NCBI GenBank assembly: GCA_021325435.1
Contig: JAJPHE010000131.1
Location: forward strand, 1-53,504
DNA length: 53,504 nucleotides
Source: Actinomycetota bacterium
Lineage (GTDB): Bacteria > Actinomycetota > Acidimicrobiia > Acidimicrobiales > JAJPHE01
Reading direction: 5' to 3'
Shown: one piece after another, positions 42,236 to 53,503 of the stretch
Numbering within the stretch: position 1 is the stretch's first letter
Layout of the letters: the number at the start of each line of letters is the position of its first letter
Program-made: the position numbers and the translations under genes
The notes under the pieces: model-generated
Databases searched by the model: none
Told to the model about the DNA's origin: nothing
The model's input: only the letters and a program-made list of their open reading frames with translations

Positions 42236-43177
42236 TCAGTCGGCGAGGCTGCGCCCGGTGAGGCGGAGGAAGACGTCCTCCAGGGTTCCTCTCCGCACCA
42301 GCCAGCTTTCGGGGGACAAGCCGCGGGTGGTCGCCTCGGCCAGGGCCGCATCGGCGTTCGCCGTGTAGAGCAGCAGGCGGTCGGGGAGCACCTCGACCCG
42401 GCTGCCGACGCCGTCGAGCTTGTCGGCCAGGGCGGAGTGGTCGTCGTCGGGCCCGAAGCGCAGTTCAAGGACTTCGCGGGTGCAGTGGTGGTCGATGAGC
42501 TGGCGGGGCGAGCCCTCCGCCGCGATCCGGCCCTTGTCCATGATGACCAGCCGGTCGCACAGCTGCTCGGCCTCGTCCATGTAGTGGGTGGTGAGCACCA
42601 GAGTGACGCCCTGCTGCTTGAGCCGGTAGAGCCTCTCCCACACGAGGTGCCGGGCCTGCGGGTCGAGGCCGGTCGTCGGCTCGTCCAGCAGCAGCAGGTC
42701 GGGCTCGCTGATCAGAGACCGGGCGATGGTGAGCCGCCGCCGCAGGCCCCCCGACAGCGGGTCGACCTTGTCGTTGGCCCGCTCGGTGAGCTGGGCGAAC
42801 TCCAGCAGCTGGTCGGTCCGCTGGCGGATGAGCTTGCGGGGCAGGTCGAAGTAGCGGCCGTAGACGAGCAGGTTGTCGCGCACGGTGAGCTCGAGATCGA
42901 GGGTGTCGTCCTGGGGCACCAGCCCCAGCCGGGCCCGGATGCGGGGCCCGGCTGTCGCCGGGTCGAGGCCCATCACCCGCAGGGTGCCGGCGGACACCGG
43001 CGACATGCAGGCGATCATCCTCATGGTGGAGGTCTTGCCGGCTCCGTTCGGCCCGAGGAACCCGAACGCCTCTCCGCGATGGACGTCGAAGTCGATTCCG
43101 TCGACGGCCACGAAACCGCCGAAGCGCTTGGTAAGGCCGCGGGCCTGGATGAGAGGCGGGTCGCCGTCGACGCTCAA
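42236..43177 (-). CDS. ABC exporter ATPase (NodI/DrrA-type)
   Basis: A 313-residue ATPase: Walker A G-P-N-G-A-G-K-T at 42-49, signature L-S-G-G-L-R-R-R-L (about 141-149), Walker B L-L-L-L-D-E-P-T-T-G-L-D, and H-loop T-T-H-Y-M-D-E-A-E. The C-terminal extension is typical of NodI/DrrA. The start codon is TTG 43177, preceded by TACGCT at 7 nt. The cargo of this three-gene exporter is unknown; antibiotics, lipids or polysaccharide are usual for the family. Confidence 0.9.
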   Translation of the reverse strand: MSVDGDPPLIQARGLTKRFGGFVAVDGIDFDVHRGEAFGFLGPNGAGKTSTMRMIACMSPVSAGTLRVMGLDPATAGPRIRARLGLVPQDDTLDLELTVRDNLLVYGRYFDLPRKLIRQRTDQLLEFAQLTERANDKVDPLSGGLRRRLTIARSLISEPDLLLLDEPTTGLDPQARHLVWERLYRLKQQGVTLVLTTHYMDEAEQLCDRLVIMDKGRIAAEGSPRQLIDHHCTREVLELRFGPDDDHSALADKLDGVGSRVEVLPDRLLLYTANADAALAEATTRGLSPESWLVRRGTLEDVFLRLTGRSLAD

Positions 43178-43184
43178 GACTGCG

Positions 43185-43190
43185 AGCGTA
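43185..43190 (-). promoter_or_regulatory. -10 hexamer TACGCT upstream of TTG start (ABC ATPase)
   Basis: Minus-strand TACGCT ends 7 nt before TTG 43177. It lies between the dnaE2 end and the exporter genes. Confidence 0.45.
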
Positions 43191-43210
43191 CCGACGGGGT
43201 CAGCGAAGTT

Positions 43211-46200
43211 TCACCGGAAATCGCGGGAAGGCGAGGCGGGCACCGTCAGGTCGAGCGGCTCGATCCGCTCGGCGACGAGGTTCACCACCCCCTCGTGGCG
43301 CTCGAGCCTTCCCCGCACGAGGAGGGCGGCGGCGGTCCGCGCCGGTCGACGGTAGCGGGCCCAGACCCCAGGAGAGCAGATCACGTTGACCAGCCCGGTT
43401 TCGTCCTCGAGGTTCATGAACGTGGTTCCCCCCGCCGTCGAGGGGCGCTGCCGGTGGGTGACCACCCCTCCCACCGTCACCCGCGACCCAGGCGGCAGCG
43501 CCGACAGATCGGAGGCGGTCACCGCCCCCATCTCCTCCAGGCGGGGACGGGCGAACTCCGTCCCCGTCCACCGCACCGACAGCCCGGTGGACCACAGGTC
43601 GGCGGCGGCCTCCTCGCGCTCGGTCATCTCCGGCAGGTCGGGGGCGTCGGCGCCCGACACCACCCCCGCCAACCGCCAAGGCCCGGAGCGGGCCAGCGCC
43701 CCCGCCGCCCACAACGCCTCGCGCCGGGTCATCGGTCGCGCCCCCTGGCCGGCCACCCGCGAGGTGAAGCAGCCAAGGGCGCCGGCGGTGGCCAGCGCCT
43801 CCAGTTGGGGCTGGGTGAGTCCGCCCCGGTGGGCCAGGTCCTCCGGGCTGCGGTAGGGACGCCCGCCGGCGATCCGTGTGGCCACCTCCTCGCCCACATT
43901 GCGCACGTAGTCGAGGCCGAGGCGGATAGATGGCCCGGCCCCAACCCCGCCGGCGACCGTGACACCGGGCCGGGCCCCGGACCCCTCGAGGGTCGTCTTG
44001 TGGCTGCTGGCGTTCACGTCGGGGCCCAGGACGGTGATGCCGTGCCGGCGGGCGTCGGCCACGAGAGTCTGGGGCGACCAGAACCCCATCGGCTGGCAGT
44101 TGAGCAACCCGGCGTAGAAGGCCGCCGGGTAGTGCAGCTTGAGCCAGGCGCTGGAGTACACGAGGTAGGCGAACGAGACCGAGTGGCTCTCGGGGAAGCC
44201 GAAGTTGGCGAAGGCGGCCATCTGCGACCAGATGGCATCCGCCGTCGCCCCGGTGATCCCCCGCTCGGTCATGCCCGAGTAGAAGCGGGCCCGCAGCGCC
44301 TCCATGCGCTGGGCGGAGCGCTTCGACCCCATCGCCTGACGCAGCTGATCCGCTTCGGCGGCGGTGAAGCCGGCGACGTCGATGGCCATCTGCATCATCT
44401 GCTCCTGAAACAGGGGCACGCCCAACGTCTTCTTCAGGCTCGGCTCCAGCAGCGGGTGCAGGTAGGTGATCTCCTCCGCTCCGTTGCGCCGGCGGATGTA
44501 GGGATGGACCGAGCCGCCCTGGATGGGACCGGGGCGGATGAGAGCCACCTCCACCACTAGGTCGTAGAACTCGCGGGGCTTCAGGCGGGGAAGGGTCGCC
44601 ATCTGGGCGCGACTCTCCACCTGGAACACCCCGACCGAGTCCGCCCGGCACAGCATGTCGTACACCGCCTCCTCCTGGGGCAGGCGCGACAGGTCCACCT
44701 CGACACCGTGGTGCTGGCGGATCATGTCGACCGCCTCGTGGACGGCGGAAAGCATCTGCAACCCGAGCAGGTCGAACTTGACCAGTCCGACCGCGGCGCA
44801 GTCGTCCTTGTCCCACTGCAGCACGCTGCGGTCGGGCATCCGGGCCCACTCCACCGGGCACACCTCGATCACCGGGCGGTCGCAGATGACCATGCCGCCC
44901 GAGTGGATGCCGAGATGCCGGGGGAAACCCTGGATCTGGCGGGCTAGCTCGAGCACGGGGGCGGGAACATCGGTGTCGTCGCCTCCCTCGGGCAGGGGGC
45001 CCCACGCGTCCATCTGCTTCGACCAGGCGTCGAGCTGGCCGGGAGGATGCCCGAGGGCCCGGCCCACGTCGCGCACCGCCGAGCGGGGCCGGTAGGTGAT
45101 GACATTGGCGACCTGGGCGGCCCGATCGCGCCCGTAGCGCTCGTATACGTACTGGATGGCCTCCTCGCGCCGGCCGGCTTCGATGTCGACGTCGATGTCC
45201 GGAGGGCCATCGCGCTCGGGGGACAGGAACCGCTCGAACAAGAGACCGAGCTCAACGGCGTCGGCGTTGGTGATGCCGAGGGCGTAACAGACCGCCGAGT
45301 TGGCGGCCGACCCCCTCCCCTGGCAGTAGATCCCCCTGCGCCGGCAGAACTCGACTATGTCCCACACCACGAGGAAGTAGCCCGGATAGCCGAGCTGCTC
45401 GATGACATCGAGCTCGTGGTCGACCTGGTCCCAGGCCCGGGCGACGCGCGGCCCGCCCCGCGGCCCGTAGCGGCGGGTGGCCCCCTCCTCGACGAGGTGG
45501 CGCAGCCAGGACATCTCGGTGTGACCCGGCGGACGGGGGAAGTCAGGAAGCTTGGGTGCCACCAGCCGCAGGTCGAAGGCGAACTCGCATCCCATCTCCG
45601 CCGCCCGGTCGACGACCCCCGGGTAGCGGAACAGGCGGCGGGCCTGCTCGGCCCCGGACCGGAGGTGGGCGCCGCCGGCGGCGGGCAGCCAGCCGTCGAG
45701 CTCGTCGAGGCTGCGGCGGGCCCGCACCGCGGCCAAGGCGGTGGCCAGCTTCCACCGGTCGGGGGTGGCGTAGTGGACGTTGTTGGTGGCCACCGGCTCG
45801 ACGTGGCGCGAGTAGGCCAGCGCCACCAGGGCGTCGTTGCGGGCGGAGTCGAGCGGATCGCCGTGATCCCACAGCTCGACGGCGACGTTGTCGCGGCCGA
45901 AGGCGGCGATCAGCCGGTCGAGTTCGCGCCCGGCGGCGGCGGGCCCTCCCGAGGCCAGGGCAGCGGGCACCGCCCCCTTGCGGCAGCCGGTCAGCACCAT
46001 CCAATGCCCACCGTGCAGCCCGGCGAGCAGGTCGAGGTCGGCGACCGGCTTGCCCTTCTCTCCTCCCGCCATCTGGGCCCGGGTGACGGCCGTGGAGAGC
46101 CGGGCGTAGCCGGCCGGGTCGCGGGCCAGCACCACCAGGTGGGCCCCCGCCGGGTCGGGCTCGCCGACCTGGGCCCGGGTGAGCCCGAGGGTGAGCTCGG

Positions 46201-46531
46201 CGCCGAACACGGTGGGCAGCCCGACGGCGGCGGCGGCCTCGGCGAAGCGCACCACCCCGGCCAGGCCGTCGTGGTCGGTGACGGCGAGGGCGGTGAGCCC
46301 GAGTCGGGCCGCCTCCGCCACCAGCTCGTCGGGATGGGAGGCCCCGTCGAGGAAGCTGAAGTTGGTGTGGCAGTGCAGCTCGGCGTAGGGGACGGCAGGC
46401 TGGCGCCGGCGGGGCGGTGCCGGAAGCCGGTGAGGCTCGGGCCGGCGGGCGAGGGCCGAGCCGTCGGTGTCGCGCCCGGACAGTCGCCCCTCCAGCTTCC
46501 GCCACGGGACCGGGGGGTTGTTGTAGCCCAT
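43211..46531 (-). CDS. dnaE2: Error-prone DNA polymerase DnaE2
   Basis: A 1106-residue C-family polymerase of the DnaE2/ImuC type. Its PHP domain begins E-L-H-C-H-T-N-F-S-F-L-D-G-A (about 51-64); the polymerase site is P-P-D-I-D-V-D-I-E; an OB-fold lies near the C-terminus (V-T-V-G-G-V-V-T-H-R-Q-R-P). DnaE2 carries out translesion synthesis with ImuA' and ImuB. ATG 46531 overlaps the imuB stop by one base (TGATG). The length is normal. Confidence 0.93.
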   Translation of the reverse strand: MGYNNPPVPWRKLEGRLSGRDTDGSALARRPEPHRLPAPPRRRQPAVPYAELHCHTNFSFLDGASHPDELVAEAARLGLTALAVTDHDGLAGVVRFAEAAAAVGLPTVFGAELTLGLTRAQVGEPDPAGAHLVVLARDPAGYARLSTAVTRAQMAGGEKGKPVADLDLLAGLHGGHWMVLTGCRKGAVPAALASGGPAAAGRELDRLIAAFGRDNVAVELWDHGDPLDSARNDALVALAYSRHVEPVATNNVHYATPDRWKLATALAAVRARRSLDELDGWLPAAGGAHLRSGAEQARRLFRYPGVVDRAAEMGCEFAFDLRLVAPKLPDFPRPPGHTEMSWLRHLVEEGATRRYGPRGGPRVARAWDQVDHELDVIEQLGYPGYFLVVWDIVEFCRRRGIYCQGRGSAANSAVCYALGITNADAVELGLLFERFLSPERDGPPDIDVDIEAGRREEAIQYVYERYGRDRAAQVANVITYRPRSAVRDVGRALGHPPGQLDAWSKQMDAWGPLPEGGDDTDVPAPVLELARQIQGFPRHLGIHSGGMVICDRPVIEVCPVEWARMPDRSVLQWDKDDCAAVGLVKFDLLGLQMLSAVHEAVDMIRQHHGVEVDLSRLPQEEAVYDMLCRADSVGVFQVESRAQMATLPRLKPREFYDLVVEVALIRPGPIQGGSVHPYIRRRNGAEEITYLHPLLEPSLKKTLGVPLFQEQMMQMAIDVAGFTAAEADQLRQAMGSKRSAQRMEALRARFYSGMTERGITGATADAIWSQMAAFANFGFPESHSVSFAYLVYSSAWLKLHYPAAFYAGLLNCQPMGFWSPQTLVADARRHGITVLGPDVNASSHKTTLEGSGARPGVTVAGGVGAGPSIRLGLDYVRNVGEEVATRIAGGRPYRSPEDLAHRGGLTQPQLEALATAGALGCFTSRVAGQGARPMTRREALWAAGALARSGPWRLAGVVSGADAPDLPEMTEREEAAADLWSTGLSVRWTGTEFARPRLEEMGAVTASDLSALPPGSRVTVGGVVTHRQRPSTAGGTTFMNLEDETGLVNVICSPGVWARYRRPARTAAALLVRGRLERHEGVVNLVAERIEPLDLTVPASPSRDFR

Positions 46532-48063
46532 CAGTCGTAGACCGCCTCGACCAACCAGCGGCCGGACTCGACCACCAGCAGCAGGGCCCGACCCTCGGCG
46601 GTCTCCACCTGCATGCGGGCCCGGCGCCGGCGGCCGCCCGGGTCCCACCACCGCTCCTGGCAGGGCCAGGGGGCCGACCAGGCCACCACCTCCGACCAGG
46701 GACCACCGGCCACCGACAGCCGCCGCGGTGGCGCGCTGGGTTGGCCCCTTCCGTCGATGATCAGCGGGCGGCCCTCCCCGTCGGCCAGCTCAGCCGGCAG
46801 GGACCGCTCCGGCACCACCGCCGGCAGCGGGGCAGGCACCCGCCCCGGCCAGGGGACCTTCGGGGGACGGGCCGGGCCGCGGTCGTCTCCCCAGGGGACG
46901 AGCCGGACGACCTCGGCCGGGCCCCGCCCCCCTTCGGGAACGGCGGTGAGGACGGTGTCGGGGCCGAGCAGAGCCTGGACGCGGGCAAGGGCGCGGGCCG
47001 CCTGTCGGTCGGCCTCGGCCACGCCACCCCAGAAGCCCTGCTGACTGCCGTGGTCGACCACCACCTCGTCCGGCGTGAGCCGGAGACGCACCAGCCCCGA
47101 GGTGGGCGGGTGCGGGCCGCCGAGCCAGCCCTCCAGCTGCCAGCGGACCCGTTCGGCCAGGGCCGGGGAGGTGAGCTGCCCGTCGTGACGCCACCACCTC
47201 ACTAGCGTCTCGCCGTGCTCGGTCTCCGCCTCGATGCCGACCTGGGTGCAGGACAACCCCCGGTCGGCCAGGGCGGCATGGAGCCGGTCGGCCAGCGATT
47301 TGGCGGCGAAGGCGGCGGCGTCCACCCGCTCGACCGGCGGGTCGAGCTCGGCGGTGACGGTCAGGTCGTCCGGCGGTGGGCGGGTGGCGAGCGGGCGGTC
47401 GTCGAGCCCGCGGGCCCGGCGCTGGGCGGTGGCTCCCTCAGCACCGAAGCGCGACAGCACCTGGGCCGACGGCAGCCGAGCCAGTTGCCCGAGGGTGCGG
47501 ATTCCGAGCCGGTCGAGCAGGTCGACCAGGGCGGCCATCCCCAGCACCCGGACCGGCATGGGCGCCAGGAACTCGGCGGCCCGCCCGGGCTCGACGACCA
47601 CGCCGTAGCGGGCGGCCAGCCCGGCGGCGAAGAGCCCGTCGGCCACGCCGACCTGGCACCGCTCCACCCCGGGCCCACCCGGGCAGGCCGCCTCGGCCGC
47701 CTCGGCTACCAGAGTGGCCAGGCGCTCCTCACCCCCGAAATAACGGGCCGGCCCCCGGGCGGTGAAGGCGCAGACGCCGGGGCGGACCACCTCCACCCGG
47801 GGGGTGAAAGCGGCGACCGCGGCCACGACCGGCTCGAACCGGCGGGCCTCGCCGGCGGGGTCGTGGGGGACGACGACCAACCCTGGGGAGCGGGCCTCGG
47901 CCTGACGCCGGCGCAGCCCCACTGCCACCCCGTCGGCCCGGGCGGCCGGCGAGCAGGCGACCACCCGGTTGGCCCTCACCACGGCCACGGGCCCGGTCGG
48001 GTCCGCCTCCGCCGCCCGGACCGGCCAGTCCGGGCACCAGACAACTGCCGTCCGGGCCATCAC
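46531..48063 (-). CDS. imuB: ImuB, Y-family polymerase homologue of the mutasome
   Basis: A 510-residue ImuB protein. The N-terminal V-V-W-C-P-D-W-P-V and the V-V-A-A-V-A-A-F-T-P-R-V-E segment are typical of ImuB; the usual Y-family catalytic acids are not preserved, so it is probably a non-catalytic hub that binds the beta clamp and recruits DnaE2. Start GTG 48063 or ATG 48060, immediately after the imuA' stop. Known role: SOS-induced mutagenesis. Confidence 0.9.
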   Translation of the reverse strand: MMARTAVVWCPDWPVRAAEADPTGPVAVVRANRVVACSPAARADGVAVGLRRRQAEARSPGLVVVPHDPAGEARRFEPVVAAVAAFTPRVEVVRPGVCAFTARGPARYFGGEERLATLVAEAAEAACPGGPGVERCQVGVADGLFAAGLAARYGVVVEPGRAAEFLAPMPVRVLGMAALVDLLDRLGIRTLGQLARLPSAQVLSRFGAEGATAQRRARGLDDRPLATRPPPDDLTVTAELDPPVERVDAAAFAAKSLADRLHAALADRGLSCTQVGIEAETEHGETLVRWWRHDGQLTSPALAERVRWQLEGWLGGPHPPTSGLVRLRLTPDEVVVDHGSQQGFWGGVAEADRQAARALARVQALLGPDTVLTAVPEGGRGPAEVVRLVPWGDDRGPARPPKVPWPGRVPAPLPAVVPERSLPAELADGEGRPLIIDGRGQPSAPPRRLSVAGGPWSEVVAWSAPWPCQERWWDPGGRRRRARMQVETAEGRALLLVVESGRWLVEAVYD

Positions 48064-48759
48064 TCACCCCGCCACCAGTCGGACCGGCCCGGGCCGGCAC
48101 CCGTCGGTCACACCGTTCGTCTCTTCTGTCGGGGGCCCGGGCTCCCACGGCAGAGGGGCGCCCTCCCCGGAGGGCATCCACATCCGGGTCCGCCGCCGGT
48201 TCCCCCGCCTTCCCCCGGCTGCCACCTCCAACAGCCGGCGGGAGAGATGACCGCATCCCCGCTCTAGCCCCACCCAGGCGGAGGCGGCGACCGACAGCTC
48301 GATGTCGCAGCGCTCCGACCACGGCCGGGCCGCCGCCACCAGGACCGCCCCCCGCTGGCGGGTCCGGGCCGCCAGCCGGCGGGCGTCGGCGGGTCCGATC
48401 CCCGCGCCGGGGCCCACCACCACAACGTCCAGCCCGTCCACCAGGGTGGCGGCGACCACCGGTCCCCGGTCACCCGGGTGCGGAACCAGAGCCAGCCGAG
48501 ACAGGTCCATGCCCGCCTCGTCCGCCGCGGCCACGCCCAGGTCGGGCAGGCCGACGACCGCCACCCACGAGCCGGCCCGCGAGGGGCCGGCCAGCAGGGC
48601 GAGGGCCACCGAGGTGGCGCCCGGTCCGGAGACGCCGACGATGGCGCCTCGGCGCAGCCCCGACGGGAGAACCGGGGCCAGGGCGGGCAGGACCGGCAGG
48701 GTCCGCTCCCCGGCCAGGGTCGCCGGTCGCGACCACTCCCTGAGCTCCGCCACCTCCAT
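48064..48759 (-). CDS. imuA': ImuA', RecA-like mutasome protein
   Basis: A 231-residue RecA-like protein in the position of actinobacterial ImuA'. L-P-S-G-L-R-R-G-A-I-V-G-V-S-G-P-G-A-T-S-V-A corresponds to a degenerate Walker A (about 32-53), and L-D-V-V-V-V-G-P-G is the beta-strand after it. The lack of an intact GKT suggests weak or no ATPase activity. It is first in the imuA'-imuB-dnaE2 operon; the LexA box lies 14 nt upstream of its ATG. Confidence 0.85.
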   Translation of the reverse strand: MEVAELREWSRPATLAGERTLPVLPALAPVLPSGLRRGAIVGVSGPGATSVALALLAGPSRAGSWVAVVGLPDLGVAAADEAGMDLSRLALVPHPGDRGPVVAATLVDGLDVVVVGPGAGIGPADARRLAARTRQRGAVLVAAARPWSERCDIELSVAASAWVGLERGCGHLSRRLLEVAAGGRRGNRRRTRMWMPSGEGAPLPWEPGPPTEETNGVTDGCRPGPVRLVAG

Positions 48760-48845: not shown

Positions 48846-50105
48846 CTAAGGAAACAGCCCCCGGGCGGAGATGGCCTCGGCCACCCGTTCCACCGCCAGG
48901 GCGAACGCCGCCCGGCGCAACGACACTCCGAGCAGCTCGGACTTGGCCCACACCCCGACGAAGGACTCCTCCATCCCCTTACGGAGCCGGCTGGCGACCG
49001 TGTGCTCGTCCCAGGCGTACCCCTGGCGGCTCTGGGCCCACTCGAAGTACGAGGCGGTCACTCCACCGGAGTTGGCCAGGATGTCGGGCACCACCACGAT
49101 GTCGCGCCGGTCGAGGATGGCGTCGGCAGAAGGGGTGGTCGGCCCGTTGGCCGCCTCCACCACCACCCGGGCACCGAGCCGCCCGGCGACGTGGTCGTCG
49201 ATGGCCCCCTCGAGGGCGGCCGGCACCGCCAGCTCGCAATCCAGCTCCCACATGTCGTCGGGCTCGATGGGGTCGCCCCGGTCGAAGCCGGCGACGGTGC
49301 CAGCGTGGGCGCAGTGGTCCGCCAGGGCCGACACATCGAGCCCCGCCGGGTTGTGCACCGCTCCCCCGATGTCACTGACGGCGACGACCCGCATGCCCGC
49401 CGAGGAGAGCAGAAAGGCGAGGGGCCCACCGACCTTGCCGAAGCCCTGGATGATCGCCCGGCTGCCCGCCACCGGGATCTCCAGCTCGGTGAACACCGAA
49501 CGGGTGCAGACGACGACGCCAGCCGAGGTGGCCCCCGAATGGCCCCGGGTGCCGCCGATGGAGAGGGGCTTGCCGGTCACCGCGCCGGGCTCGGCCCGAC
49601 CGGTCATGGTCGCCAGGGTGTCCATGAGCCAGGCCATGACCCGTCCGTCGGTGTTCACGTCGGGGGCGGGCACATCGCGGTCCTGGCCCAGGAGCGGCAT
49701 CACCTCGACCGTGTAGCGGCGGGTGACCCGCTCCAGCTCTCCCAGCGACAGCTTGGTCGGATCACAGCGGACCCCGCCCTTGGCCCCGCCGAAGGGCAGG
49801 TTGGCCACCGCCGTCTTCAGGGTCATCGCCGCGGCGAGGGCGGCCACTTCTCGGGCGTCGAGCTGCGGGTGGAAGCGCAACCCCCCTTTGGCCGGGCCCC
49901 GCGTGGTGTCGTGATGGATCCGCCAGCCGGTGAACACCTCCACGTGGCCCTCGTCCATCCGAACCGGCACCGCCACCTCGAGCACCCGTTTGGGGGTGCG
50001 CAGCAGGCGGTGGATGTCCGGATCCACCCCGGTCAGCTTGGCGGCGTCGTCGAGGCGCTCGAGCACCGCCGCCCACGGATCGAATCCAACCGCCACCGCC
50101 ACCAT
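48846..50105 (-). CDS. Glu/Leu/Phe/Val dehydrogenase (glutamate dehydrogenase-like)
   Basis: A 419-residue amino-acid dehydrogenase of the GDH family. F-T-G-W-R-I-H-H-D...G-P-A-K-G-G-L-R-F-H-P with K73, then K97, and K109 in P-F-G-G-A-K-G-G-V, are substrate and catalytic lysines; I-Q-G-F-G-K-V-G (about 220-227) is the NAD(P) motif. It interconverts 2-oxoglutarate plus ammonia and glutamate, or acts on a related amino acid. The ATG is at 50105; the long frame upstream is a shadow of the divergent gene. Divergence from the arginine/ornithine genes fits nitrogen metabolism. Confidence 0.9.
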   Translation of the reverse strand: MVAVAVGFDPWAAVLERLDDAAKLTGVDPDIHRLLRTPKRVLEVAVPVRMDEGHVEVFTGWRIHHDTTRGPAKGGLRFHPQLDAREVAALAAAMTLKTAVANLPFGGAKGGVRCDPTKLSLGELERVTRRYTVEVMPLLGQDRDVPAPDVNTDGRVMAWLMDTLATMTGRAEPGAVTGKPLSIGGTRGHSGATSAGVVVCTRSVFTELEIPVAGSRAIIQGFGKVGGPLAFLLSSAGMRVVAVSDIGGAVHNPAGLDVSALADHCAHAGTVAGFDRGDPIEPDDMWELDCELAVPAALEGAIDDHVAGRLGARVVVEAANGPTTPSADAILDRRDIVVVPDILANSGGVTASYFEWAQSRQGYAWDEHTVASRLRKGMEESFVGVWAKSELLGVSLRRAAFALAVERVAEAISARGLFP

Positions 50106-50133
50106 CCTGGCCCAACCAGCGACCGGAGAGCGG

Positions 50134-50139
50134 TACCTT
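50134..50139 (+). promoter_or_regulatory. -10 hexamer TACCTT for the ornithine/arginine genes
   Basis: TACCTT predicts a start near 50146 and a short leader with GAGGGGG before ATG 50160. It sits in the 54-bp gap shared with the divergent dehydrogenase. Confidence 0.4.
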
Positions 50140-50159
50140 CGGCCCGAGGGGGTGGGTCC

Positions 50160-51392
50160 ATGGCCACCGAACAGGTCGAGTTGCGCGGCCACATCATCGA
50201 CTCGCTGATCCTGGCCAAGGTGATGGACGTCATCATCGACGCCGGGGCCGACTACCGGCTGGTGGAGGTAGACATCGGGCGGACCAACACCGACCAGAGC
50301 CGGGCCGTCATCGAGGTGACGACCGGCGACGACTCCTCGCTGGAGGCGCTCCTCGACGAGCTGCACGTTCACGGCGCCAACCGGATCGATCCGGGCACGG
50401 CCGACGTGTCGCCCGTCGAGGTGGACGGGGTGCTGCCGCCCGGTTTCTACTCGACCACCAACCTGCCCACCTGGGTGCGTCTCGGCCAGCGCTGGTGGCC
50501 GGTCGGCAACCCCGAGATGGACTGCGCCCTGGTGGCGTCGGAGGGACAACCGGGCGAGTGGGTGGCCCGCACCGTTCCGATGCACCGGGTGTGCGCTGGC
50601 GATCTCGTCGTCGTCGGCCACTCCGGGGTGCGGGTCGAGGCCCCCAACCGGCCGCGGGGCGCCACCCCGTTCGAGTTCATGACCTCCGAGGTGTCCTCCG
50701 AGAAGCCGAAGGCCTTGATCGTGGCCGAAGTGGCGGAGCGGGTCCGTCGGGCCCGGTCCCAGCCGGGCGCCAAGGTGTTGGCCGTTTGCGGCCCCGCCGT
50801 CATCCACACCGGCGCCGGACCCGACGTGGCCCGCCTGGTGGCCGCCGGGTGGATCGACCTGCTCTTCGCCGGCAACGGGTTCGCCACCCATGACATCGAG
50901 TCCAACGTCCTGGGCACGTCGCTCGGTGTGTCGGTGGGCGAAGGAACCGTCGTCGAGGGGGGACACGCCAACCATCTTCGGGCGATCAACGAGATCCGCC
51001 GCTACGGATCCATAGCCGCCGCGGTGGAGGCCGGCTACCTCCGAGGCGGGGTGATGTACGAGTGCGTGCGGGCCGGGGTTCCCTTCGTGCTGGGAGGGTC
51101 GCTGCGCGATGACGGTCCCTTGCCCGACGTCATCACCGACGTGGTGGCCGCGGCCGATGCCATGCGATCGCTCCTGCCCGGGGTGTCAGTGGCCTTGATG
51201 CTGGCGTCGACGCTGCACGCCATTGCCACCGGCAACCTCTTGCCTGCATGGGTCGAGACGTTCTGTGTCGACATAAACCAGGCGGTGGTTACCAAGCTGG
51301 CCGACCGCGGGTCGCACCAGGCCCTCGGGGTGGTCACCGACGTGGGCCTTTTCATCCGCGGCCTGTGCGACCAGCTGTGCCCGCCGGCATGA
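50160..51392 (+). CDS. TIGR00300/LOR-SDH-type ornithine cyclodeaminase-like protein
   Basis: A 410-residue protein of the LOR/SDH (TIGR00300) family. The N-terminal E-L-R-G-H-I-I-D-S (about 7-15) and A-D-Y-R-L-V-E-V-D-I-G form the family-specific domain; the C-terminal V-L-A-V-C-G-P-A-V-I-H-T-G-A-G, L-L-F-A-G-N-G-F-A-T-H-D-I-E and E-G-G-H-A-N-H-L match the NAD-binding half found at the C-terminus of cyanobacterial ArgZ/AgrE and in archaeal ornithine cyclodeaminase. It probably converts ornithine to proline and ammonia. The start is ATG 50160; the upstream frame is a shadow. The arginine dihydrolase-like gene follows 10 nt later. Confidence 0.8.
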   Translation: MATEQVELRGHIIDSLILAKVMDVIIDAGADYRLVEVDIGRTNTDQSRAVIEVTTGDDSSLEALLDELHVHGANRIDPGTADVSPVEVDGVLPPGFYSTTNLPTWVRLGQRWWPVGNPEMDCALVASEGQPGEWVARTVPMHRVCAGDLVVVGHSGVRVEAPNRPRGATPFEFMTSEVSSEKPKALIVAEVAERVRRARSQPGAKVLAVCGPAVIHTGAGPDVARLVAAGWIDLLFAGNGFATHDIESNVLGTSLGVSVGEGTVVEGGHANHLRAINEIRRYGSIAAAVEAGYLRGGVMYECVRAGVPFVLGGSLRDDGPLPDVITDVVAAADAMRSLLPGVSVALMLASTLHAIATGNLLPAWVETFCVDINQAVVTKLADRGSHQALGVVTDVGLFIRGLCDQLCPPA

Positions 51393-51402
51393 GCGGAGCA
51401 CC

Positions 51403-52233
51403 ATGAGCGAGCTGGCGTGGGGCCGGCGCTTCCTCATGTGCCCGCCGGACCACTTCGACGTCGCCTACGAGATCAACCCTTGGATGAGCGTCGAGGTGCA
51501 GGCCGACCCGGAGCGGGCCGCCGCCCAGTGGGAGAACCTCGTCAGCTGCCTGCGCCAGGCCGGAGCAGCGGTAGAAGTCATGGACCCAGTGGAGGGCCTG
51601 CCCGACCTGGTCTTCACCGCCAACGCCGGCATCGTCAACGGATCCCAGTTCGTCCCGTCGCGCTTCCGTCACCCCGAGCGCCAAGGCGAGACGCCCCATG
51701 ACGTCCGGTGGTTCTCCTGTCATGGCTTTCGGGTCGAGGAGCTGCCCAACTCGGTCACCCACGAGGGGGCGGGTGACGCCCTTCCGTTCGGCTCGGTCCT
51801 TCTGTCCGGCTACCGGTTCCGCTCGGATGCCGCCTCCCACGCCCACCTGTCTCGCCTGACCGGCGCGGCGGTGCGCTCTCTGGAGCTCTCCGACCCCCGC
51901 CTCTACCACCTGGACCTGGTCTTCTGCCCGCTCGACGACCGACGGGCACTGGTCGCCCCCCTCGGACTCGACCGCTACGGCCGCAAGGTCGTGGAGGCCA
52001 CGGTGCCCGAGCCGCTGCTGCTGGACGATGACCAGGCACTGTCCTTCTGCGCCAACTCGGTGGTCGTCGGCACGAACATGGTCATGCCCGCCTGCCCACC
52101 CGCTCTCGGCCGACGCCTCGAGAAGCTGGGCTTCGAGGTGGCGGTGTGCCCAGTAGACGAGTTCCAGAAGGCCGGCGGCGGGTGCCGCTGTCTAACCCTC
52201 GCCCTCGACGTGAGCCTGGCCGTGGCCGCCTAG
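51403..52233 (+). CDS. Arginine dihydrolase-like protein (ArgZ/AgrE N-terminal type, GME superfamily)
   Basis: A 276-residue guanidine-modifying-superfamily protein. I-N-P-W-M with N25, F-T-A-N-A-G with N74, V-T-H-E-G-A-G-D (about 118-125), L-Y-H-L-D with H169, and G-G-G-C-R-C-L-T with C263 line up with the residues I remember as essential in ArgZ (two Asn, His, Cys). ArgZ turns arginine into ornithine, ammonia and CO2. The Asn at positions where arginine deiminases and DDAH have Asp supports dihydrolase over deiminase. It follows the ornithine gene by 10 nt; together they are a split ArgZ. Alternative: another amidinohydrolase. Confidence 0.78.
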   Translation: MSELAWGRRFLMCPPDHFDVAYEINPWMSVEVQADPERAAAQWENLVSCLRQAGAAVEVMDPVEGLPDLVFTANAGIVNGSQFVPSRFRHPERQGETPHDVRWFSCHGFRVEELPNSVTHEGAGDALPFGSVLLSGYRFRSDAASHAHLSRLTGAAVRSLELSDPRLYHLDLVFCPLDDRRALVAPLGLDRYGRKVVEATVPEPLLLDDDQALSFCANSVVVGTNMVMPACPPALGRRLEKLGFEVAVCPVDEFQKAGGGCRCLTLALDVSLAVAA

Positions 52234-52275: not shown

Positions 52276-53503
52276 GTGCCCGAGAACATCTCGGAGGAGC
52301 GATTCACCGAGGAGGCGCTGGCCTTCCTCGAGGCCAACGCCGAGCTCAAGGTGGAGGAGAAGACTGGTTGGGGCCAGGGCTCCGACGAGGTGGGGCTGCT
52401 GGCCGAGAAGACCACCGAGGAGGAGCAGGCCGAGGTGGCGGCGGCCAAGGCGTGGCGGCAGAAGGTCTTCGACGCCGGCTTCGGGTGGATCACCGGCCCG
52501 GCCGCCTACGGCGGTCGCGAGCTGCCCGTCTCCTACGAGCGACTCTGGCAGTCCCTCGAGTCCGCCTACCAGACCCCGCCGGGCACCCCCTTCGGCATCG
52601 GGTTGGGGATGGTCGCCCCGACGATCCTCGCCCACGCCACTGACGAGGTGAAGGACCGTTACCTGCGCCGCCTCTACCGGGGCGAGATCATCGCCTGCCA
52701 GCTGTTCAGCGAGCCGAGCAACGGGTCGGACCTCGCCGGCATCCAGACCCGGGCGGTGCGCGACGGCGACGAGTGGATCGTCACCGGCCAGAAGGTGTGG
52801 ACATCGGGGGCGCAGTACTCCGACATCGGCGAGATCGTCTGCCGCACCGAACCCGACGCCCCCAAGCACAAGGGCATCACCGCCTTCGTGGTCGACATGC
52901 ACGCCCCCGGTGTGGAGGTGCGACCGCTGCGGCAGATGACCGGCGGGGCGTCGTTCAACGAGGTGTTCTTCACCGAGGTCCGGGTGCCCGACGACCACCG
53001 GCTGGGTGATGTCAACGGCGGCTGGACCGTCGCCCTCACCACCCTCATGAACGAGCGGGCGTCGATCGGGCGGCGGCGGGGGCGGGGTGGGAGTCATGAG
53101 CAGCACCCGCCTCGTCGAGATGGTCCGTCACTTCGGCCGCGACCAGGATCCGCTGGTGCGCCAGCGACTGGCCGACATCGTCATCCACTCGAGGGTCGCC
53201 GCCTACACCAACCAGCGGGCCATGGCCAAGATCCGGGCCGGCCAGCTGCCGGGTCCCGAGATGTCGATCGCCAAGCTGTCCTTGACCAACAACATGACCC
53301 GCATCTCGGAGTTCGTGGCCCAGGTGCTCGGCCCCCGGCTGGTGGCCGACACCGGCGAGTGGGGAACCTACGCCTGGTCCGAGTTCGTCCTGGGGACGCC
53401 CGGGCTGCGCATCGCGGGGGGAACGGACGAGGTGATGAAGAACATCGTCGGCGAGCGGGTCCTCGGCCTGCCCAAGGAGCCGCCGGGCCCCGACGGACGC
53501 TAA
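52276..53503 (+). pseudogene. Acyl-CoA dehydrogenase, apparent +1 frameshift near 53068-53070
   Basis: An ACAD flavoprotein that oxidises acyl-CoA. The N-terminal half reads in one frame from GTG 52276 (W-I-T-G-P-A-A-Y-G-G-R-E, then C-Q-L-F-S-E-P-S-N-G-S-D-L-A, W-T-S-G-A, and L-M-N-E-R-A-S-I-G near residue 265). The C-terminal half continues in another frame from about 53075 (R-L-V-E-M-V-R-H-F-G...I-A-G-G-T-D-E-V-M-K-N-I-V-G-E-R-V-L) to TAA 53503. Removing one G from GGG 53068-53070 joins them through a Gly run and gives 408 residues, normal for ACADs. As given the product is truncated. It may be a real mutation or a consensus error. Confidence 0.82.

What the first reader, a model, noticed from the sequence alone, without database searches (positions are those of the whole stretch)
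50160..52233. Split ArgZ/AgrE: ornithine cyclodeaminase-like and arginine dihydrolase-like genes as an actinobacterial pair
In cyanobacteria ArgZ/AgrE is one polypeptide: an N-terminal arginine dihydrolase and a C-terminal LOR/SDH ornithine cyclodeaminase. Here the two halves are separate adjacent genes in reversed order, 10 nt apart, divergent from a glutamate dehydrogenase by 54 bp. The key Asn, His and Cys residues of the dihydrolase are present (N25, N74, H169, C263). This predicts an arginine-to-proline route releasing ammonia, with no urease or arginine deiminase needed.
Basis: partly seen in the sequence, partly recalled or inferred. Interest (0 to 1): 0.68.

Follow-up and report, generated by a model that had tools for sequence, protein, structure and literature searches.

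The report
Two-gene arginine-to-proline degradation pair
Two neighbouring genes very probably make the two enzymes that turn arginine into ornithine and then proline while releasing ammonia, a pathway known as a single fused protein in cyanobacteria but found here as a separate, oppositely ordered pair that turns out to be widespread in bacteria.

Summary
A 410-aa TIGR00300 ornithine cyclodeaminase (OCD, 50160-51392) and a 276-aa arginine dihydrolase (DH, 51403-52233) lie 10 nt apart, 54 bp from a divergent glutamate dehydrogenase. The DH model (pLDDT 96) overlays ArgZ/AgrE at 1.1 A (Z 42.5; DDAH 31.2). N25, N74, H169 and C263 align with ArgZ/AgrE. The genome has no match to arginase or arginine deiminase and no real urease, but has ProC and proline dehydrogenase. 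So the arginine-to-proline reading is well supported, though unassayed.

The 'actinobacterial pair' framing is too narrow: 50 of 80 fetched relatives, from seven phyla (eight with one doubtful MAG), carry the same OCD-then-DH pair. The cyanobacterial fusion has the reverse order.

The most useful new point is the partner. In other Actinomycetota the same DH sits before an ornithine aminotransferase (22 of 30 best loci, the window's own included in the 30), and three fetched loci fuse the two. Six scanned members of the main aminotransferase-paired clade pass NCBIfam's 'dimethylargininase' model (M. tuberculosis type). The partner swap argues that these too are arginine dihydrolases.

The parts
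50160..51392 (+). LOR/SDH-type ornithine cyclodeaminase (TIGR00300), 410 aa: ornithine to proline + ammonia
   Evidence: TIGR00300 492 bits over cut-off 410.8; AgrE C-terminal half 334.9 bits and archaeal 3c2q 335.5 bits in PDB
51393..51402 (+). 10-nt intergenic gap; a GGAG (51395-51398) sits 4 nt before the DH start codon and is Shine-Dalgarno-like (by eye)
   Evidence: sequence
51403..52233 (+). Arginine dihydrolase (counterpart of the N-terminal half of ArgZ/AgrE, as a separate gene), 276 aa; conserved residues N25, N74, E121, H169, C263
   Evidence: PDB ArgZ/AgrE 216-223 bits; model pLDDT 96.4, VIA-align Z 42.5, 1.1 A over 265 residues to 6jv1; residue alignment
50106..50159 (.). 54-bp region between the divergent GDH and OCD start codons; presumably holds both promoters (not tested)
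   Evidence: sequence
48846..50105 (-). Glutamate dehydrogenase (419 aa), divergent neighbour; a plausible end of the pathway (glutamate to 2-oxoglutarate + ammonia)
   Evidence: PF00208 222 bits, PF02812 176 bits; archaeal-type GdhA model 428 bits, below its cut-off 750; adjacency not conserved

Best explanation
The two genes encode, as separate proteins, the two half-enzymes of cyanobacterial ArgZ/AgrE. The 276-aa protein hydrolyses arginine twice on an active-site cysteine (C263), giving ornithine, CO2 and two ammonia. The 410-aa protein closes ornithine to proline and releases a third ammonia. Proline dehydrogenase elsewhere in the genome and the neighbouring glutamate dehydrogenase can then carry the carbon to glutamate and 2-oxoglutarate, so the pair most likely serves arginine catabolism for nitrogen and carbon. 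Shown here: sequence, fold and active-site identity, gene order, recurrence of the pair, absence of arginase, deiminase and true urease matches, presence of ProC and proline dehydrogenase. Inferred: the activities, co-transcription, and the direction of flux.
For: Family and PDB matches. Structural overlay: Z 42.5 at 1.1 A to ArgZ against 31.2 at 2.1 A to DDAH and 26.9 or less to arginine deiminase. Active site: N25 and N74 are present in 30 of 30 actinobacterial loci found by profile, the window's own among them, and in 112 of 112 family rows (80 of these were found through peptides holding one of the two residues). By contrast 4 of 4 arginine deiminase-like and 8 of 10 DDAH-like proteins have Asp at position 74, and E. 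coli AstB, also a dihydrolase, has Asn. Pseudomonas DDAH has Asp there too (alignment). OCD is upstream of DH on the same strand in 50 of 80 loci. Unsupervised clustering of neighbour frames gave OCD as the most recurrent neighbour and, in other actinobacterial loci, a class-III aminotransferase, which is an ornithine aminotransferase where scanned. Own genome: no arginase, deiminase or true urease; ProC and proline dehydrogenase present. The Flores 2021 letter (PMC8262935, whole text read) describes AgrE giving proline, one CO2 and three ammonium.
Against: No enzyme of this split type was assayed here or in any paper I could open. The DH scores far below the curated cut-offs of both arginine-dihydrolase models (252 of 450; 256 of 1025). 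26 of 80 relatives have neither OCD nor ornithine aminotransferase beside them in the DNA held (for three of these under 1.3 kb upstream is held; L103 has an OCD about 4.7 kb away on the other strand). The double-Asn pattern is not unique to the family: two distant proteins, L171 and L175, show Asn at both aligned positions but lack D125. Ornithine transcarbamylase is present (299 bits), so ornithine could instead re-enter arginine synthesis.
Confidence: 0.87

Rival explanations
1. [quoted passage not shown]
For: It matches the Pfam DDAH_eukar model (38.6 bits, over its cut-off 23) and NCBIfam 'dimethylargininase, Mtb type' at 235 bits. The superfamily fold is shared.
Against: 235 bits is below that model's cut-off of 300. 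Sequence match to ArgZ is 216-223 bits against 27-31 to solved DDAH. Asn, not the Asp of DDAH and deiminase, at position 74. The recurring partners use ornithine, not citrulline.
Confidence: 0.07
2. The pair works mainly as part of an ornithine-ammonia cycle: ornithine from the dihydrolase returns to arginine through ornithine transcarbamylase, and OCD only drains or balances the pool, or serves proline biosynthesis as in methanogens.
For: Ornithine transcarbamylase is present; a free-standing OCD (MMP_1218) is said to make proline in a methanogen, PMC10809761 (passages seen). Separate polypeptides would let ornithine escape.
Against: ProC is present (255 bits, over cut-off), so OCD is probably not needed for proline synthesis. 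Proline dehydrogenase is present in the own genome. No cyanophycin synthetase over cut-off in 7 of 7 genomes searched, so the cyanobacterial storage context is missing. OCD is upstream of DH in 50 of 80 loci, which favours joint use.
Confidence: 0.15
3. On the cofactor only (not exclusive of the main reading): the OCD half depends on the nickel-pincer nucleotide cofactor rather than on NAD+ alone.
For: NCBIfam names TIGR00300 'nickel-pincer nucleotide-dependent'. LarC matches in 32 of 36 Actinomycetota genomes with TIGR00300 over cut-off against 212 of 360 others (table read by eye, test; Fisher p 0.0002, not corrected for kinship). The own genome has LarC (202.6 bits) and LarE (283.8 bits).
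Against: G034, G179 and G205 have OCD but no LarC match and no LarE over cut-off; G040, G114 and G269 also lack LarE over cut-off, and G221 lacks LarC. The AgrE structure 6lrg is titled a complex with ornithine and NAD+. I found no paper on this cofactor in OCD.
Confidence: 0.55

Closest known systems
ArgZ (Synechocystis Sll1336) / AgrE (Anabaena Alr4995), bifunctional arginine dihydrolase-ornithine cyclodeaminase
   Same: Both halves by sequence and fold; DH 43-44% identical over the aligned residues at 1.1 A; residues N25, N74, H169, C263 align; OCD half 335 bits to AgrE and 305 to ArgZ
   Different: Two genes instead of one polypeptide, in the opposite order (OCD first), in an actinomycete genome without a cyanophycin synthetase over cut-off
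Free-standing archaeal ornithine cyclodeaminase (MMP_1218 type; TIGR00300 rings in the Methanocaldococcus and Haloferax control genomes)
   Same: Same family, over the TIGR00300 cut-off
   Different: Here followed by an arginine dihydrolase gene; ProC is also present, so a catabolic rather than biosynthetic role is likelier
NCBIfam NF045659 'dimethylargininase' of the M. tuberculosis type (named for Rv2323c, as I take it)
   Same: Clearly related: 35-40% identical to the window protein; same Asn25/Asn74, E, H and C pattern; a representative matches ArgZ at 147 bits and DDAH at 25 bits
   Different: Partner is ornithine aminotransferase downstream, not OCD upstream; the window protein is below this model's cut-off and sits in a different clade
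N-succinylarginine dihydrolase AstB
   Same: Same fold (Z 28.1), dihydrolase chemistry by name, Asn in place of Asp at position 74
   Different: 447 aa, in the ast operon with succinylarginine enzymes

Membership tests
ArgZ/AgrE bifunctional enzyme (NF052231) | One polypeptide carrying both domains | tested here: not met
   Two ORFs with stop at 51392 and start at 51403
ArgZ/AgrE bifunctional enzyme (NF052231) | Curated score cut-off 1025 bits | tested here: not met
   385.7 bits (OCD) and 256.2 bits (DH), separately
Arginine dihydrolase domain (NF052232) | Curated score cut-off 450 bits | tested here: not met
   251.9 bits; none of 396 Actinomycetota genomes passes it
Arginine dihydrolase (ArgZ-type), as a functional class | Catalytic Cys, His and the two Asn (ArgZ C264, H168, N71, N22; the H168 and N22 numbers are derived from the alignment offset, their roles recalled) | tested here: met
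   C263, H169, N74, N25 align; PDB titles name N71 and C264 as mutated residues
Arginine dihydrolase (ArgZ-type), as a functional class | Fold of the ArgZ N-terminal domain | tested here: met
   Z 42.5, rmsd 1.1 A, 265 residues to 6jv1
Arginine dihydrolase (ArgZ-type), as a functional class | Arginine to ornithine, CO2 and 2 ammonia | not testable with these tools
   Needs an assay
Ornithine cyclodeaminase TIGR00300 | Curated score cut-off 410.8 bits | tested here: met
   492 bits over positions 1-403 of 407
Ornithine cyclodeaminase TIGR00300 | Nickel-pincer nucleotide cofactor (as NCBIfam names it) | tested here: inconclusive
   LarC and LarE present in own genome; 32 of 36 OCD genomes have a LarC match, 3 lack LarC and LarE over cut-off
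Dimethylargininase (NF045659, Mtb type) | Curated score cut-off 300 bits | tested here: not met
   235.3 bits
Dimethylargininase / DDAH proper | Asp at the aligned position 74 (its guanidinium-binding role is recalled) | tested here: not met
   Asn74; Pseudomonas DDAH has Asp
Arginine deiminase (TIGR01078) | Match to the arcA model | tested here: not met
   No match anywhere in the own genome at E 0.001, this protein included

The most novel reading that the evidence does not exclude
The actinobacterial proteins that NCBIfam names 'dimethylargininase' of the M. tuberculosis (Rv2323c) type are arginine dihydrolases. One old enzyme swaps ornithine-consuming partners: ornithine cyclodeaminase upstream (the window) or ornithine aminotransferase downstream. 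The aminotransferase arrangement includes natural dihydrolase-aminotransferase fusion proteins (L074, L093, L094), which would be a new bifunctional enzyme turning arginine into glutamate semialdehyde. It would supply the missing first step of arginine use in mycobacteria that lack arginase.
Probability: 0.75. Interest if true: 0.68.

Novelty: new variant of a known kind. Interest (0 to 1): 0.52.

Why it matters
It moves the arginine dihydrolase route out of cyanobacteria: a two-gene form is spread over seven phyla, eight with one doubtful MAG, Nitrospira and Planctomycetota among them. The partner swap gives a sequence-only argument that a group of actinobacterial proteins named dimethylargininase is misnamed. 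That would explain published results in which loss of Rv2323c nearly stops proline formation from arginine in an organism without an arginase homologue (Hampel et al. 2015, PMC4569260).

Tried and rejected
Rejected: chance adjacency (50 of 80 loci show the same order). Rejected as the main reading: DDAH or deiminase (see rivals). Rejected as a conserved unit: GDH plus pair (a GDH in 1 of 100 loci). Considered and dropped: a cyanophycin-mobilising role (no cyanophycin synthetase over cut-off in 7 genomes).

Led nowhere: the two structural papers on ArgZ and AgrE are not held, so their residue assignments come from PDB titles and from my own recall; phrase searches for the LOR/SDH family and for the cofactor in OCD found nothing; neighbour ORFs were stop-to-stop frames and included antisense shadows (3 of the 10 scanned had no Pfam match and were set aside). 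In one search the loci of the - strand were translated on the wrong strand; those rows were thrown away and redone.

Limits of the counts. The 80 loci were found through the peptides YEINPWM or PD[ML]VFTAN, so each was bound to show one of the two Asn; the set without this bias is the 30 loci, which include the window's own. From I examined 30 loci (the best per genome), of 50 matches above 130 bits. L063 and L090 are the same locus, as are L066 and L067. The OCD count allows up to 1000 nt between the matches; the largest gap found is 494 nt. Beyond the clustering I looked only for OCD, ornithine aminotransferase and GDH as partners; other recurrent neighbour clusters (ThiG, a response regulator, a carbon-nitrogen hydrolase, DUF1501) were not followed. 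The tree used 82 rows by the quick method without bootstrap; 35 of the 80 loci (19 without partner, 16 with OCD), 5 of 10 DDAH-like rows, the deiminases and AstB were left out, and its root is weak. MAG contigs may be misbinned, for example L084, labelled Acidobacteria but nested among Acidimicrobiia. In loci labelled 'none' the partner may lie beyond the DNA held.

Full report
What is there. The window holds an OCD ORF at 50160-51392 (410 aa) and a DH ORF at 51403-52233 (276 aa) on the + strand, 10 nt apart, with a GGAG before the second start codon. A glutamate dehydrogenase starts at 50105 on the - strand, 54 bp from the OCD start. The window is a whole contig (C72) of a 4.0-Mb, 160-contig, 96.2% complete genome.

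What the proteins are. The OCD passes the TIGR00300 cut-off (492 bits, cut-off 410.8) and matches the C-terminal half of AgrE (335 bits) and the archaeal structure 3c2q (336 bits) in the PDB. The DH matches ArgZ/AgrE at 216-223 bits and Pseudomonas DDAH at 27-31 bits. It stays below the curated cut-offs of both arginine-dihydrolase models and of the Mtb-type dimethylargininase model, so by NCBIfam's own rules it belongs to none of them; the argument rests on structure, residues and context. Its AlphaFold2 model (mean pLDDT 96.4) overlays ArgZ with Z 42.5 and 1.1 A over 265 residues, against 31.2 and 2.1 A for DDAH, 28.1 and 2.4 A for AstB, and 26.9 or less for arginine deiminase.

Active site. 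N25, N74, H169 and C263 align with the ArgZ/AgrE positions; the PDB titles name N71 and C264 as mutated residues. The telling position is 74. It is Asn in ArgZ, AgrE and AstB, that is, in enzymes named dihydrolases, and Asp in 4 of 4 arginine deiminase-like proteins (413-430 bits to TIGR01078 over the hits, all under its cut-off 489) and 8 of 10 DDAH-like proteins aligned here, and in Pseudomonas DDAH. Two distant DDAH-like proteins (L171, L175) show Asn at both aligned positions 25 and 74 but lack D125 and other motifs; so the two Asn alone do not define the family. Asn25 and Asn74 are present in 30 of 30 profile-found actinobacterial loci, the window's own included, and in 112 of 112 rows of the larger set, 80 of which were found by peptides that contain one of these two residues. 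That Asn rather than Asp marks the dihydrolases agrees with what I recall of the ArgZ and AstB papers, which I could not open.

How common the pair is. Of 396 Actinomycetota genomes, 36 have TIGR00300 over cut-off (54 at any level) and 85 match the DH model (none over its cut-off, many of them weak DDAH-like hits). OCD and DH lie side by side, OCD first, in five: G000 (the window), G274, G006, G036 and G021; contig ends cut the pair in G274, G006 and G021. One scan of 84,980 species genomes kept the best 80 of 581 relatives. 50 have OCD upstream on the same strand (gap at most 494 nt), 2 have ornithine aminotransferase downstream in the same frame, 2 have only the LOR/SDH N-terminal domain, and 26 have neither in the DNA held. 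The 50 come from Planctomycetota 16, Actinomycetota 10, Verrucomicrobiota 8, Nitrospirota 7, Chloroflexota 3, Omnitrophota 2, Methylomirabilota 1, one MAG labelled Acidobacteria (probably misbinned) and two unplaced. 20 of 36 Planctomycetota loci lack the partner. The separate OCD-then-DH pair is therefore a widespread form and the cyanobacterial DH-OCD fusion a special one. Which is ancestral was not established, because deep branches of the tree are weakly supported.

Partner swap. Of the 30 actinobacterial DH loci fetched (the window's own among them) have OCD upstream, 22 have a class-III aminotransferase downstream, and 4 have neither in the held flank. The aminotransferase in L074 passes the ornithine aminotransferase model TIGR01885 (467 bits, cut-off 378.4); the others were found by similarity to it. 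In L074 (G298), L093 (a Solirubrobacteraceae MAG) and L094 (a Thermoleophilaceae MAG) the dihydrolase and the aminotransferase are one open frame. On the tree the window protein sits in a starred clade of 13 rows (12 with OCD, one with neither); aminotransferase partners lie in a separate starred clade of 21 rows (18, and 3 with neither) and in a second of 9 rows (6, and 3 with neither) inside the 100%-supported clade of 26 rows that also holds the window. An enzyme that is repeatedly placed next to one or another ornithine-consuming enzyme is most simply one that makes ornithine.

Consequence for 'dimethylargininase'. Six of six scanned aminotransferase-paired proteins of the 21-row clade pass the NCBIfam model 'dimethylargininase, Mtb type' (386-468 bits, cut-off 300). 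Two of two scanned from the smaller clade (L036, L038; 227 bits) do not pass it, nor any arginine-dihydrolase model. A passing representative matches ArgZ at 147 bits and DDAH at 25 bits and has the double-Asn signature. For the M. tuberculosis member Rv2323c, Hampel et al. 2015 (PMC4569260; abstract, the Results section and a Discussion passage read) report induction by arginine together with rocD, no arginase homologue, a growth defect on arginine and 13C-excess in proline of 6.4% against 49.8% on deletion. They also report that rocD is frameshifted in that species, so ornithine must be used by another route there, that it is full-length in other mycobacteria, and that some nitrogen use from arginine remains without Rv2323c. 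They call Rv2323c a gene of unknown function annotated as DDAH. A 2024 review (PMC11008464; passages seen) still calls it DDAH. I found no paper joining it to arginine dihydrolase, within a library that lacks most subscription journals. I did not align Rv2323c itself; the link is through the NCBIfam model named for Mtb.

Pathway context in the own genome. No arginase-family match, no arginine deiminase, urease alpha only 21.6 bits; ProC 254.9 bits, proline dehydrogenase 275.9 bits in a 983-aa frame, ornithine transcarbamylase 299.1 bits, no cyanophycin synthetase over cut-off. Among the five pair genomes proline dehydrogenase is in 5 of 5, deiminase in 0 of 5, urease over cut-off in 0 of 5, and arginase-family proteins in 3 of 5. 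This fits arginine to ornithine to proline to glutamate, with glutamate dehydrogenase as a possible last step. Because ornithine transcarbamylase is present, partial return of ornithine to arginine cannot be excluded.

Cofactor of the OCD half. NCBIfam calls the family nickel-pincer-nucleotide dependent. LarC matches in 32 of 36 genomes with OCD over cut-off and in 212 of 360 others (read by eye). LarE is over cut-off in 31 of 37 OCD genomes searched. G034, G179 (one genus) and G205 lack LarC and LarE over cut-off, which speaks against strict dependence or reflects missing contigs. I found no publication on this.

Is it in print? Searches for ArgZ/AgrE and arginine dihydrolase listed no paper whose title or abstract start describes a split pair; most of those papers I did not open. 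The NnhA paper (PMC11659421; [quoted passage not shown] Verdict: confirmed and well interpreted in biochemistry, too narrow in taxonomy; a new variant of a known kind.

Noticed in passing
window 52276-53503: Acyl-CoA dehydrogenase gene broken by an apparent frameshift: N-terminal and middle domains in the frame from 52276, C-terminal domain in another frame from 53087, with a G-rich run between. Could be a sequencing error or a pseudogene.
   Followed up: partly
window 43211-48759: DnaE-type polymerase III alpha (PHP, finger, OB domains), an ImuB-like Y-family polymerase (IMS domain) and a small upstream ORF without a Pfam match, on the - strand: looks like an ImuA-ImuB-DnaE2 mutagenesis cassette (the cassette names are recalled). 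Frames similar to the ImuB-like one occur near the pair in L066 (G274), L085, L086, L091 and L142.
   Followed up: partly
L160 7617-8792; L133 7748-7993: The LOR/SDH N-terminal domain (PF04455) occurs without the rest of OCD: fused to the front of the dihydrolase in a Vampirovibrionales MAG, and as an 82-aa frame before it in a Verrucomicrobia MAG. Suggests a role of this domain with the dihydrolase.
   Followed up: partly
L074 6600-8711, L093 7764-10064, L094 7524-10004: Single open frames joining arginine dihydrolase and ornithine aminotransferase, likely natural fusion enzymes.
   Followed up: partly
L080 7850-8392: An Lrp/AsnC-type regulator lies next to the dihydrolase-aminotransferase pair; frames similar to it cluster in seven loci, of which only this one was scanned.
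   Followed up: partly
L171 (G114), L175 (G178): A more distant guanidine-enzyme type with Asn at aligned positions 25 and 74 but without D125 and other family motifs; unknown function.
   Followed up: no
window 42239-43210: A - strand frame of 324 aa whose similar frames occur in ten of the searched loci, the window counted; not identified.
   Followed up: no
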